Shown here one piece after another: positions 57,301-63,300 of a stretch of 64,000 bases of DNA. The position numbers and the translations under genes were made by a program. The number at the start of each line of letters is the position of its first letter. Position 1 is the stretch's first letter. The notes beneath the pieces are model-generated. The model was not told the origin of the DNA and made no database searches. It saw nothing but the letters and a program-made list of their open reading frames with translations. This stretch comes from Amphibalanus amphitrite (lineage: Eukaryota > Arthropoda > Thecostraca > Balanomorpha > Balanidae): NCBI RefSeq assembly GCF_019059575.1, contig NW_024881974.1:124001-188000 (forward strand). Direction: 5' to 3'.

Positions 57301-60300
57301 ATCTCGCCGCCATGTGCTGTATCTGCCTCGCCGCGCTGCTCCACGCGGCCCCCGCCGCGCCCCGCCGGCATGAGCGAAAGCATTATTCACGCCGGCCACC
57401 GAGTGGTATTCGGTGTGCGTGACCGCGGCATCGCACAGAGCTAGAGCAAGTCCGGGCGGGCGGAACTAGTTATGTGCGGCGTCGCAGTCTTCTGGCGAGT
57501 CTGGGGTGGGGCGGAATCGCAACATCGCACGAATCTCTGCCGAGTCCGGGGCGGGCGGGCGGAACCGTTCTTCATAACAGCAGCTTCTCAGCGACTCCTG
57601 CCGCGTCTGGAGCGGGTGGGTGGAACGGTTCTCCTCTGTGGTCGTTCTCTGAGCCCCTATCCGCCGCGGGATTGGCGAATCTGTCACGCCCGGCCTCCCA
57701 GCGTGCAGCCGGGAACCGCACGGCGGTTCAGGAGCTGAGGCGAATGGCTCGGCGGTTCGGTGGAGTTTCGACCGGGAGTTCGCACGCCTTATCGTGCTGG
57801 GAGAAATGCCTGGGAAGCTTGGTTTCTGTATGGGGGAAAACAATGGCGATTTCATAACTGTAGTATCGCGTTGATGCTCAGTTTGGCAGTTTTGGTACAG
57901 ACGTGTGCAGCCATGCATTACTGAGACGTTTTATGGTGCTAGGCGTCTCACCGCATTATATGTGACGGCTTATAACCGTTTTCTTCATGCTCGTCATGCC
58001 ATTGTGATGTGATAAATGCCAATCTGCGGCCGTTATTTGTTGTGTGCACCGTATCTTTTGTCAGAAAGGAAACTCTTATAGCCAGCAGATTGATGACCTG
58101 CTATTTATTCGAGCTGAATAGGCGCAGCGATCACTTGTTGTACTTAAATCAATATCTAATCCACAGGACAGTCATTTCATGGAAAATACATTGTTTAGAG
58201 TGGAGACTTGGAAACGTGCGTACCAGATGCGCCAGAATGCTAAGCTGCTTAACCAAGGCTAACTTCTATTATCATGATATATTTATTCTAAGATAGGCCG
58301 GCTGACCCGGCCCTGTTCTCCGCAGAGTTTGCCAAGGAACAGTGCGCCCCGGACGTGCCTCTGGACAGTCTGAACCTCTACAACAAGACGTGCTACGAGC
58401 TGCAGCTGAACAAGGGCGCCGACTTCCTGAAGGCGCGCCAGCACTGTCAGCGTATGAGCGGCGACCTGGTGCACACGCTGCCCGACCCGGCGTTCGCCTA
58501 CCTGCTGGACCACCTGGAGCGGAGCAAGGCCGCCATGCGCACCCAGCTCATCTGGGTGGGCATCAGGAAGGTGCCCGGCAAGGACATGTGGCGCTGGGTC
58601 GACGGTGAGTGGCGCGGGGTCGACGATGGGTTGGTGTGTGTTTTCTACAGATTGACACCTTGCGGACGTCTAGGAAACGGGGCGTGACTCCAGATACCTC
58701 ACTGCATCAATCAGTGGTTTCAATGCCAGTGTTGTGCTGTGGCTGCGACAGAGGAGCCCCTCACTGACCGTCCCCCCTGCCGCTGCCCCCAGGCACTGAG
58801 GTGGTGCGGCTGGCTGCTCTGTCCCCCCCAATCATTGATCGTCCCCCCTGCCGCTGCCCCCAGGCACTGAGGTGGTCCAGCCACGCTGGGGCCGCGACCA
58901 GCCCAACAGCTACGTGGGCGAACAGAACTGCGTGGTGCTGGATGGAGGCCGTGACTGGCTCTGGAACGACGTCAGCTGTCAGCTCGACTACCTCCACTGG
59001 ATCTGCGAGTACAGTGAGTAGACACAATATAACACAGACTACCTCCACTGGATCTGCGAGTACAGTGAGTAGACACAATATAACACAGACTACCTCCACT
59101 GGATCTGCGAGTACAGTGAGTAGACACAATATAACACAGACTACCTCCACTGGATCTGCGAGTACAGTGAGTAGACACAATATAACACAGACTACCTCCA
59201 CTGGATCTGCGAGTACAGTGAGTAGACACAATATAACACAGACTACCTCCACTGGATCTGCGAGTACAGTGAGTAGACACAATATAACACAGACTACCTC
59301 CACTGGATCTGCGAGTACAGTGAGTAGACACAATATAACACAGACTACCTCCACTGGATCTGCGAGTACAGTGAGTAGACACAATATAACACAGACTACC
59401 TCCACTGGATCTGCGAGTACAGTGAGTAGACACAATATAACACAGACTTCCTCCACTGGATCTGCGAGTACAGTGAGTAAATACATAGTAACACAGACTA
59501 CCTCCACTGGATCTGCGAGTACAGTGAGTAGACACAATATAACACAGACTACCTCCACTGGATCTGCGAGTACAGTGAGTAGACACAATATAACACAGAC
59601 TACCTCCACTGGATCTGCGAGTACAGTGAGTAGACACAATATAACACAGACTACCTCCACTGGATCTGCGAGTACAGTGAGTAGACACAATATAACACAG
59701 ACTACCTCCACTGGATCTGCGAGTACAGTGAGTAGACACAATATAACACAGACTACCTCCACTGGATCTGCGAGTACAGTGAGTAGACACAATATAACAC
59801 AGACTACCTCCACTGGATCTGCGAGTACAGTGAGTAGACACAATATAACACAGACTACCTCCACTGGATCTGCGAGTACAGTGAGTAGACACAATATAAC
59901 ACAGACTACCTCCACTGGATCTGCGAGTACAGTGAGTAGACACAATATAACACAGACTACCTCCACTGGATCTGCGAGTACAGTGAGTAGACACAATATA
60001 ACACAGACTACCTCCACTGGATCTGCGAGTACAGTGAGTAGACACAATATAACACAGACTACCTCCACTGGATCTGCGAGTACAGTGAGTAGACACAATA
60101 TAACACAGACTACCTCCACTGGATCTGCGAGTACAGTGAGTAGACACAATATAACACAGACTTCCTCCACTGGATCTGCGAGTACAGTGAGTAAATACAT
60201 AGTAACACAGACTACCTCCACTGGATCTGCGAGTACAGTGAGTAGACACAATATAACACAGACTACCTCCACTGGATCTGCGAGTACAGTGAGTAGACAC

Positions 60301-63300
60301 AATATAACACAGACTACCTCCACTGGATCTGCGAGTACAGTGAGTAGACACAATATAACACAGACTACCTCCACTGGATCTGCGAGTACAGTGAGTAGAC
60401 ACAATATAACACAGACTACCTCCACTGGATCTGCGAGTACAGTGAGTAAATACATAGTAACACAGACTACCTCCACTGGATCTGCGAGTACAGTGAGTAG
60501 ACACAATATAACACAGACTACCTCCACTGGATCTGCGAGTACAGTGAGTAGACACAATATAACACAGACTACCTCCACTGGATCTGCGAGTACAGTGAGT
60601 AGACACAATATAACACAGACTACCTCCACTGGATCTGCGAGTACAGTGAGTAGACACAATATAACACAGACTACCTCCACTGGATCTGCGAGTACAGTGA
60701 GTAAATACATAGTAACACAGACTACCTCCACTGGATCTGCGAGTACAGTGAGTAGACACAATATAACACAGACTACCTCCACCGGATCTGCGAGTACAGT
60801 GAGTAAATACATAGTAACACAGACTACCTCCACTGGATCTGCGAGTACAGTGAGTAAATACAACTCTATCACAGACTACCTGCACTGGATCTGCGAGTAC
60901 AGTGAGTAAATTCACCTCTAACTGCTAACACATACTTCCTCCACTGGATCTGCGAGTACAGTAACTGTAAGTCGGGTCAACTGTAAGAGACCGCACTGAG
61001 TGAAGTCTAGTGATCAGTGAGGTCATGCAGTGAAAAGGGCCTCGGATTACTTTATTGTTCTGAAGCCGAGTAAATGCCACGTAAATATAAATAGACACGT
61101 TGATATATAATAAACAGTTCTAGTAAATATAACTAGAACTGTTGATGCATTTGACTTCATTTAGCGCAATGTCTGTTGAAACCAAATGAACGGCTTATTT
61201 ATCAACTCGCAGTCCATTTTCCCCGAGTTCCCTTCATGTCATTACGTCATGTCTCGGTAATTCAATCTCCTATAAAGACGTTGACACAAACCCGCCTCTA
61301 ATTACGTTTATTACGGGTGTCTCGGCTTTATGAGAGCATAATACAGCCTGGTAATTGTAAGCCGCAGTGACTAAATGAGGCCTTCAAGGATCATTTTACA
61401 TCAACTGCAATCACATCTGAATGGGTAACACATGTGATAATTGTCCGTGCTGCTCTCAACTTTTAGCACCACTCTCCGCGGCTGCCCTCTGACAGTCCTC
61501 CACCACTCCGTCCACCTTCCTCCCTCTCTCTCTCTCTCTCTCTCTCTCTCTCTCTCTCTCTCTCTCTCTCTCTCTCTCTCTCTCTCTCTCTCTCTATCTC
61601 TCTCTTTCTCTCTCTCTCTCTTTCTCTCTCTCTCTCTCTCTCCCTCTCTCTCTCTCTCTCTCTCTTTCGTTCGCTCGCTCTGACGGCCCTCTACCCCCTC
61701 TCCCCAGAGCCCCAGATGTGCGGCAGTCCGGACAAGAACGAGAACACGACTATCGTGGGCAGCGACTTCGGCCTGAACCGTACAATCTTCTACCGCTGCC
61801 CCGAGGGCAACAAGGTGGTCGGGGACGAGGTGCGCACGTGCCAGCAGACGGGCTTCTGGTCGGGCGCCGCGCCCACCTGCCAGTGTGAGTACAGAGTACT
61901 GATTACTGAGTACCGAGTACCGAGTACCGAGTACCGAGTACTGGGCACTGGGGCGGCGCCGAGCCCACCTGCCAGTGTGAGTACAGAGTACAGAGTACAG
62001 AGTACAGGGTACAGAGTACAGAATACACAGTGTACCGAGTACCGGGCACCTACCCGACGTATGCCTGTTAGTGCACTCCGGAGCTGTTGTTGCGCATTGC
62101 ACACTATGACACTGAACAGGGTACACTTTACAGACTCACCCGAATTTATCACATGCTGTGTGACTGTCGCGTGTAATAGCGTAATTTATAGTTAGCTCAG
62201 CCGTCATAAATGCACAGCACTGGTCTATCATTTGCCGACTTTCGCCTTTAGCCGACCCGTTCCATCTCGCGAATTCCCCAACTGATGTGAGACCTTTCCG
62301 TCATCTCTCCGTGACCTTCCCATGACCTTTCCGTGACCTTTCTAGGGTCTTCCCGTGCCCCGTCGGCTTACGGCAGAGACCGGACCTTTGACCCGACGAC
62401 CGAAATCCCACTCCCCGACCGCAGTGATAGCTCTCTCCCGGTTCCGGATGATGAAATTACACTGAGTGATACTAAATTACTGAACGGTGACCCTGCTTAA
62501 CCTGTGACAACGGCGATCTTGACCATTTCCAGGCCAAAGTCTCTTATGTGGCCCGATTCGGAGTGAAGCTTTTACATATGATTCTTTGGCGATTGGTGAT
62601 CATGTTCCCCTGTATATGTTCCCCACGGCACCCCACTGACGTCCTCTCCCCTGCTGTGGCCGACAGTCGTCGAATGCGGGCCGCTGGACGAGATCGCTCA
62701 CGGCCAGCTGACACTGGTCGACAACCGCACCACGTACGCCTCGCGCGCCGAGTACGTCTGTGACGCCAACTACACGCTTGTCGGCGAGCAGCTGCGCACC
62801 TGTTCCGACGGCGGCGCGTGGTCCGACGAGGCGCCGCAGTGTCTCTGTGAGTACAGCGCGGCGGGACGGGGGACGGCGGTTTCTCTGTGAGTTCAGGGCG
62901 GCGGGACGGGGGACGGCGGTGCCTCTTGTGAGTGTAGGGCGGGGCGTGGGGTGGTGCCGCGTGGACCGAAGAGCCGCCGCAGTGTCTCTGTGAGTACAGG
63001 GCGGCGATACGGGGGATGGTGGGGCCGGTAGCGGGGCAGGGAGACGCCGGTATGGGTGCGCTTTGAATCTATAGTGACATTGACATGGTGACTTTTCGGT
63101 GAGATGTATAAAATGTGTAAATTCAGTTAAGCACTAACTCAGCTGAAAAGTATGTTGCAATGGTTTGGTTATGGTATCTGGCTAAACCGAAACATTCTGA
63201 TGTACCATTTACGGTCTAACTGAAATGTTATCGTCTGCATCTGAAATACGATAAAATTAAGGTTGTCCGGGCAATGGGCAATTAGTAACAAACCGGCAAG

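What the first reader, a model, noticed from the sequence alone, without database searches (positions are those of the whole stretch)
58987..60960. A 5' splice site multiplied 38-fold: minisatellite grown from the C-type-lectin exon's own end
Seen: the last 27 bases of exon 7 plus GTGAGT and 18 intron bases repeat in a 51-bp unit; 37 exact GTGAGT decoys follow the real donor. Since 51 is a multiple of three, any extended exon keeps frame but meets TAG (first at 59019-59021) or TAA in every unit, so every downstream donor would truncate the receptor after the lectin domain. Inference: either the first donor is always chosen, or copy number tunes a truncated, secreted-type lectin form. Variant units repeating exactly 14 units apart show block-wise expansion.
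Basis: partly seen in the sequence, partly recalled or inferred. Interest (0 to 1): 0.78.

Follow-up and report, generated by a model that had tools for sequence, protein, structure and literature searches.

The report
Splice-donor minisatellite in a lectin gene
The end of one exon of a lectin-type receptor gene, with its splice signal, has been copied about 38 times into the next intron; this is most likely a harmless, fast-changing 'mirage' repeat of a kind known from amphioxus, but here over half of the exon ends examined in this gene carry such copies.

Summary
In detail: window 58986-60962 is a 51-bp array made of the last 28 bases of the C-type-lectin exon, its donor and 17 more intron bases. 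The real donor (59014) is followed by 37 exact GTGAGT copies. A second contig, very probably the other haplotype, has 6 extra copies; a paralogue shares the intron but has no array. This is the structure called a 'mirage' in amphioxus genes, where published RT-PCR suggests normal splicing. So the first donor is most likely used and the array is intronic passenger DNA. The truncated-lectin idea has no positive evidence here, but no RNA could be examined. Beyond the given finding: 8 of 13 donors of this gene have donor-spanning copies (7 of 13 in the other haplotype, 1 of 13 in the paralogue, 2 of 34 other sushi exons), against 1 of 13 acceptors. Donor arrays also start at exon ends of other genes here (cryptochrome, DP, a PHO4 transporter, a peritrophin; FoxP weakly). 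Donor copies seem tolerated and acceptor copies not, as expected if the first donor is used. The kind is known; I saw no report of such clustering, or of an arthropod case, in the paper listings I viewed.

The parts
58326..58604 (+). first C-type-lectin-domain exon (exon c), donor at 58605; no donor-spanning copies
   Evidence: Pfam Lectin_C over exons c+d; ORF, splice sites and match to paralogue
58770..58876 (+). doubled 3' splice site: pyrimidine tract, CAG and the first bases of exon d occur twice, 71 bp apart (77 bp in the other haplotype); use of the upstream copy would shift the frame
58864..59013 (+). second C-type-lectin-domain exon (exon d); its last 28 bases are the first unit of the array
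59014..59019 (+). authentic 5' splice site GTGAGT (best explanation: the one used)
   Evidence: part of an intact 826-aa ORF over exons b-m in both haplotypes; same position in paralogue C11
58986..60962 (+). 51-bp donor-spanning minisatellite ('mirage'): real donor, 37 intact decoy donors and one copy without GTGAGT
61708..61884 (+). first sushi (CCP) exon (exon e), donor at 61885
   Evidence: Pfam Sushi
61948..61986 (+). intronic copy of the exon e end with donor (GTGAGT at 61977); not found in the other haplotype
62667..62846 (+). second sushi exon (exon f), donor at 62847
62839..62999 (+). copies of the exon f end and donor (GTGAGT at 62847, 62887, 62928, 62990; the best full-length copy is 62960-62999)
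61520..61665 (+). (CT)n pyrimidine tract upstream of the true acceptor of the array-bearing intron

Best explanation
This is a 'mirage': a minisatellite made by tandem duplication across an exon-intron boundary, here the 5' splice site of the last C-type-lectin exon. Shown: the exon end and donor occur many times over in the following intron, the copies and the exon end share haplotype-specific variants at several exons, and length differs greatly between the two haplotype contigs. Inferred: the spliceosome uses the first, authentic donor, so the other 37 donors are excised with the intron and the array is close to neutral. Inferred: donor-spanning copies survive because the upstream original stays in front, whereas acceptor-spanning copies put a decoy before the real site and are removed by selection, which fits the donor bias seen.
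For: Array anatomy. Second haplotype contig C2240: 6 extra copies, diverged; collinear with C477, 79 of 2481 exon positions different, 7 of 826 residues different. Paralogue on C11 has the same intron, no array. Using first donors throughout gives an intact 826-aa ORF over 12 exons in both haplotypes. Shared variants: 38 of 39 exon-end pieces in this haplotype read CTC, the exon included; in the other haplotype the exon and 5 of 6 copies read CTG and the sixth ATG, and the paralogue reads CTG. Sharing of haplotype-specific changes also at exon f (coding) and exon m (last base). 28 identical units, 1428 bp without a change, point to recent or continuing homogenisation. Donor bias: 8 of 13 donors against 1 of 13 acceptors, Fisher p 0.011. 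Profile over both haplotypes (26 donors, not independent) peaks at the donor: 13-15 of 26 windows starting at -40 to -10 have a forward copy, 0 of 26 starting at -60 or further upstream, 2-6 of 26 at +200 to +390. Precedents reported to splice normally: PMC3087553 (passages), PMC3902484 (passage).
Against: No transcript was seen, so use of the first donor is inferred. The donors are locally identical, so nothing in the nearby sequence favours the first. C2240 could in principle be a recent duplicate rather than an allele. The ORF test is partly circular, because I chose the donors with the frame and the paralogue in view. Shared exon-copy variants are not seen at every exon: at exons k and l the copies resemble the other haplotype's exon. 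Divergence around the array is uneven (6.1% upstream, 15.4% downstream).
Confidence: 0.8

Rival explanations
1. Regulatory switch: some transcripts use a downstream donor, keep a stop right after the lectin domain and make a truncated, secreted-type lectin, with copy number tuning the ratio.
For: 37 decoy donors identical to the real one; extensions meet a stop; intronic minisatellites near alternative splicing are reported in C. elegans (PMC4039745, passages).
Against: Copy number is 38 versus 6 between haplotype contigs; arrays of the same kind occur in unrelated genes, with periods divisible by three no more often than chance; the stop exists in the array-free paralogue; transcripts using the third or a later donor carry the stop about 95 nt or more before the junction and may be degraded (inference); amphioxus precedents are reported to splice normally.
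Confidence: 0.07
2. The donor array is useful as such: many U1-binding sites just after the exon raise recognition of the real donor or protect the long intron from premature cleavage.
For: GTGAGT is intact in 37 of 38 copies; donor bias over acceptors.
Against: Intactness follows from homogenisation of nearly identical units; the other haplotype has 6 copies, one with GT changed to GC; the paralogue has none at this donor.
Confidence: 0.07
3. Each unit is a potential in-frame 27-nt microexon (AG|27 nt|GT), so the array could insert repeats of nine residues at the end of the lectin domain.
For: 37 AG|ACT candidates in the array; 27 is divisible by three.
Against: Pyrimidine content before these AGs averages 0.38 (range 0.38-0.56) against 0.77 (range 0.56-0.94) at 13 real acceptors; neighbouring microexons would be split by 24-nt introns, below the usual animal minimum (recalled); an extra copy of the last lectin cysteine would be added.
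Confidence: 0.02
4. Duplications are not aimed at donors: they fall everywhere, and donor-spanning ones are simply the exon-touching class that selection allows.
For: The gene body is repeat-rich: 18.5% of windows have a strong forward copy; exon cores have none, 0 of 39, as purifying selection predicts.
Against: The profile peaks at the donor and is lower through the intron; 8 of 13 donors against a rate of 0.185 gives p 0.0007, though that rate counts overlapping windows, including the arrays themselves, not events.
Confidence: 0.35
5. Assembly artefact.
For: Long identical units are hard to assemble; raw reads were not available.
Against: A shorter array of the same unit on another contig; variant units in a structured order.
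Confidence: 0.03

Closest known systems
Amphioxus 'mirages' (Adh3, globins BflGb6 and BflGb9, TnC; similar repeats in PGBD5)
   Same: Minisatellite-like tandem duplication spanning an exon-intron boundary, length different between haplotypes (6 and 3 units in BflGb6), concerted evolution; splicing reported as normal (PMC3087553 passages; PMC3902484 passage). The original Adh3 paper was not held and is known here only through these citations.
   Different: Here the genome is probably arthropod (inferred, not established), the array is longer (38 extra copies), over half of the donors examined in one gene are affected, and donors greatly outnumber acceptors.
Human internal tandem repeats at exon-intron boundaries of recent duplicates (PMC2812944, passages)
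   Same: Minisatellites at exon-intron boundaries with variable copy number.
   Different: Those are reported to create new introns and alternative transcripts; no intron gain is seen here, since the paralogue shares the intron.
Intron gain by tandem duplication carrying splice signals (PMC4974935, search listing only)
   Same: A tandem duplication involving a splice signal.
   Different: Here an existing intron is lengthened; no new intron is seen.

Membership tests
mirage (exon-intron-boundary minisatellite) | Tandem unit spans a genuine exon-intron boundary | tested here: met
   28 exon + 23 intron bases per unit; exon is C-type lectin by Pfam and matches paralogue C11 up to the donor
mirage (exon-intron-boundary minisatellite) | Length differs between haplotypes | tested here: met
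   38 versus 6 extra copies on C477 and C2240, taking C2240 as the other haplotype
mirage (exon-intron-boundary minisatellite) | Concerted evolution of units, with an array boundary escaping it | tested here: met
   28 of the first 37 units identical, the most diverged units at the 3' end; exon and array share CTC in this haplotype. At exons k and l no such sharing
mirage (exon-intron-boundary minisatellite) | Regular splicing of the mRNA is not disturbed | not testable with these tools
   No RNA data; only the intact first-donor ORF
Intron gain by tandem duplication | A new intron absent from relatives | tested here: not met
   Paralogue C11 has the same intron without an array
Regulated truncated-lectin isoform | Transcripts using downstream donors | not testable with these tools
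   No transcripts available
Furrowed-like or selectin-type receptor (name and domain order recalled, from no call) | F5/8-type domain, C-type lectin, then sushi repeats | tested here: met
   Pfam F5_F8_type_C_2, Lectin_C and Sushi in that order; the domain order alone was tested, orthology to furrowed was not

The most novel reading that the evidence does not exclude
In this genome 5' splice sites are mutational hot spots for tandem duplication, perhaps through replication or repair accidents at transcribed donor sequences, so that exon ends repeatedly seed minisatellites. The excess of donor over acceptor arrays is then an evolutionary record of the rule that the first complete donor is used, and the arrays are a standing reservoir of spare splice sites for new isoforms or introns.
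Probability: 0.3. Interest if true: 0.75.

Novelty: new member of a known kind. Interest (0 to 1): 0.5.

Why it matters
It is a natural experiment in 5' splice-site choice: 38 locally identical donors in a row, with natural alleles (most likely) of 38 and 6 extra copies. Transcript data would show directly whether position alone decides donor choice. It also suggests that boundary-spanning minisatellites, described in amphioxus, occur repeatedly in an unrelated and highly heterozygous genome, and that donor and acceptor boundaries differ in their tolerance of duplication. That bears on how introns lengthen and how new splice sites arise.

Tried and rejected
Chance reading frames: one plus-strand frame and two minus-strand frames stay open through most or all of the array (713, 704 and 650 codons stop to stop). 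A 51-bp unit leaves about 2.6 of 6 frames open by chance (my estimate), and in the other haplotype the unit lengths (54, 51, 62, 49, 52, 52) break any single frame, so I rejected a coding array.

DNA hairpin as a driver of expansion: two units fold no better than shuffles (z 0.15).

Faster substitution of exon ends by conversion from arrays: 9 of 288 positions in the last 36 nt of mirage exons differ between haplotypes, against 42 of 1211 in the rest of them, so no excess.

Survey limits: the control outside this gene was one family (34 of 98 sushi matches, chosen by hand as one contig per apparent twin pair, leaving out the three gene copies and hits in very long open frames). Donors were picked by a rough consensus score, two of them poor; for 7 of 34 less than 450 nt of intron was searched. 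Two weaker cases (scores 18 and 15) were not counted; one exon-core control of 34 reached 20, beside CTG-rich sequence. In the gene itself the 450-nt search can run into the next exon: the score of 17 after donor g in the other haplotype is the end of exon h and was not counted. A protein-kinase search (not repeated) and an LDL-receptor-A search did not complete.

Pattern search: AGGTRAGT three times with gaps of 20-50 gives 194+248 matches against 93+119 for the reversed pattern. These are overlapping matches, not arrays, so the excess is only indicative. The listed rows (not the whole list) hold 22 distinct arrays by my count; I looked at all 22 (8, 14). The upstream exon is supported by homology in 5; in 3 (L102-L104) further units lie upstream of the copy I examined; the rest are undecided. 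Pfam matched 3 of 17 upstream peptides, taken from 17 of the 22 arrays. Solved-structure searches: 6 tried, one with strong matches (cryptochrome), one weak (FoxP, E 0.0013), one match that I take as spurious, three empty.

Twin contigs: of five partner stretches fetched four were compared; two pairs align well (3.4% and 8.3% different), two poorly (35% and 30%). The fifth (L108) was not used.
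Full report
WHAT IS THERE. Window 58986-60962 is a 51-bp tandem array of 38.6 copies. The unit is the last 28 bases of a C-type-lectin exon, the donor GTGAGT and 17 more intron bases. The authentic donor is at 59014; 37 exact GTGAGT copies follow, the last at 60902, and a 39th core at 60950 lacks it. Cores 1-37 are exactly 51 bp apart; 28 of the first 37 units are identical. The variant pair B-C recurs 14 units apart (units 9-10 and 23-24). The eight exon-nearest units are identical and the most diverged lie at the far end.

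THE GENE. Pfam finds an F5/8-type (galactose-binding) domain, then C-type lectin, then sushi domains. This order recalls arthropod furrowed or selectin-type receptors; that name is recalled and orthology was not tested. A pentamer repeat at 28450-28501 fits the arthropod telomere type, and a barnacle was my guess, both from memory. The published A. amphitrite assembly sizes I saw in passages (613 and 609 Mb) do not match the 807.6 Mb of G000, so the species stays open.

SECOND HAPLOTYPE AND PARALOGUE. The same assembly holds a collinear contig, C2240. It differs at 79 of 2481 exon positions over 12 exons and at 7 of 826 residues. Many other sushi loci in the listing also come as equal-scoring twins on two contigs; of four such pairs compared, two differ by 3.4% and 8.3% and two align poorly. 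I take C2240 as the other haplotype; a recent duplicate is not excluded. Its array has 6 extra copies, more diverged and uneven in length. A paralogue on C11 has the same intron with no copy of the donor segment. The simplest reading is that the array arose inside an existing intron after the paralogues split and expanded greatly in one haplotype; loss in the paralogue is not excluded.

COUPLED TURNOVER OF EXON AND ARRAY. In the window's haplotype 38 of 39 exon-end pieces, the real exon included, read CTC. In the other haplotype the exon and 5 of 6 copies read CTG, the sixth ATG; the paralogue reads CTG. At exon f a two-residue haplotype difference, and at exon m the last exon base, are shared between exon and a neighbouring copy. 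The pattern is not universal: at exons k and l copies resemble the other haplotype's exon. Exon-end divergence is not measurably raised (9 of 288 against 42 of 1211 positions).

OVER HALF OF THE DONORS ARE AFFECTED. I compared the 40 bases across each donor with the next 450 intron bases. Clear copies (score 20 or more) follow 8 of 13 donors in this haplotype and 7 of 13 in the other, against 1 of 13 in the paralogue. Exon-core control segments gave 0 of 39. Extra copies, this haplotype against the other: d 38/6, e 1/0, f 1/1, h 1/2, i 5/2, k 1/1, l 1/2, m 11/2 (score 24 or more). Exons g to m lie partly or wholly beyond the window, in the 40 kb downstream that I fetched. The positional profile, pooled over the two haplotypes and so not 26 independent cases, peaks at the donor: 13-15 of 26 windows starting at -40 to -10, none starting at -60 or further upstream, 2-6 of 26 at +200 to +390. 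Acceptors are duplicated in only 1 of 13 (this haplotype), 2 of 13 (other haplotype) and 1 of 10 (paralogue, with two weaker scores of 18 and 16).

ELSEWHERE IN THE GENOME. Of 34 other sushi exon ends taken from 98 matches, 2 have clear donor copies and 2 weaker ones; 8 of 13 against 2 of 34 gives Fisher p 0.00014. One of the clear cases has no copy on its apparent twin contig (2 against 0), although that pair aligns poorly overall. A search for three spaced AGGTRAGT sites gives 442 matches against 212 for the reversed pattern. Among its 22 listed arrays, five start at exon ends supported by homology: transcription factor DP, a PHO4 phosphate transporter and a peritrophin domain, cryptochrome and, weakly, FoxP. 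The cryptochrome array has 18 exon-end pieces at a mostly 53-bp period, on two contigs. Of 14 periods that I tabulated by hand, 5 are divisible by three (one is an average and some arrays vary by a base), so the frame-preserving 51 bp here needs no special explanation.

HOW IT MOST LIKELY WORKS. Splicing exons b-m at their first donors gives an intact ORF of 826 residues in both haplotypes. Donor-spanning duplication leaves the original exon-plus-donor in front; acceptor-spanning duplication puts a decoy in front of the real site. If the first complete site is favoured, the former is tolerated and the latter is not, and the observed 8 of 13 against 1 of 13 (p 0.011) fits. This step is inference. 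The one acceptor duplicate at exon d (71 bp here, 77 bp in the other haplotype, neither a multiple of three) would shift the frame if the upstream copy were used, so it must be largely ignored; that is a point against a strict first-site rule for acceptors. Without RNA the use of 59014 alone is a prediction, helped by amphioxus reports that boundary duplicates do not disturb splicing (PMC3087553 passages; PMC3902484 passage).

ALTERNATIVES. A regulated truncated lectin remains possible but has no positive evidence. Microexon use of the units is unlikely, because their AGs are preceded by 0.38 pyrimidine against 0.77 at real acceptors. A coding reading of the array and a hairpin driver were rejected. 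Whether donors are truly targeted, or are only the exon-touching class that selection allows, is not settled.

NOVELTY. The kind is known: 'mirages' of amphioxus. In the rows that my paper searches listed (25 of 79 papers, 12 of 66, 5 of 5, 4 of 4, 2 of 2, 8 of 26) I saw no report from an arthropod and none of a gene with most donors affected; the library holds only open-licence papers. The clustering, the donor bias and the occurrence in several genes are the parts worth following up.

Noticed in passing
C477 downstream of the window: exons h, i, k, l, m (loci L013-L016; 64413-68911 in window-extended coordinates): Five further exons of the same gene with donor-spanning copies, the largest set with 11 extra copies at 68-69 bp after exon m (2 in the other haplotype).
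   Followed up: yes
L112 (C46) and L111 (C891): Cryptochrome exon end present 18 times at a mostly 53-bp period. The two contigs are nearly identical but differ by small indels, perhaps unpolished copies of one haplotype.
   Followed up: partly
L054, L046, L097, L047: Donor arrays starting at exon ends of FoxP (weak match), DP, PHO4 phosphate transporter and peritrophin-type genes.
   Followed up: partly
L078 (C298) and L107 (C912): A sushi exon with two donor copies on one contig and none on its apparent twin.
   Followed up: partly
C2240 reverse-complement 17691-18869; window 176-1349 and 5285-6495: A repeat of about 1.2 kb sits in the intron before exon d in the other haplotype but not at that place in the window, where two related copies (about 80% identical) lie elsewhere.
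   Followed up: no
window 28450-28501: TAACC pentamer repeat, an arthropod telomere-type motif (recalled).
   Followed up: no
window 8697-9445 and 36567-37377: Other minisatellites (31 bp x 24; 20 bp x about 40); not checked for exon ends.
   Followed up: no
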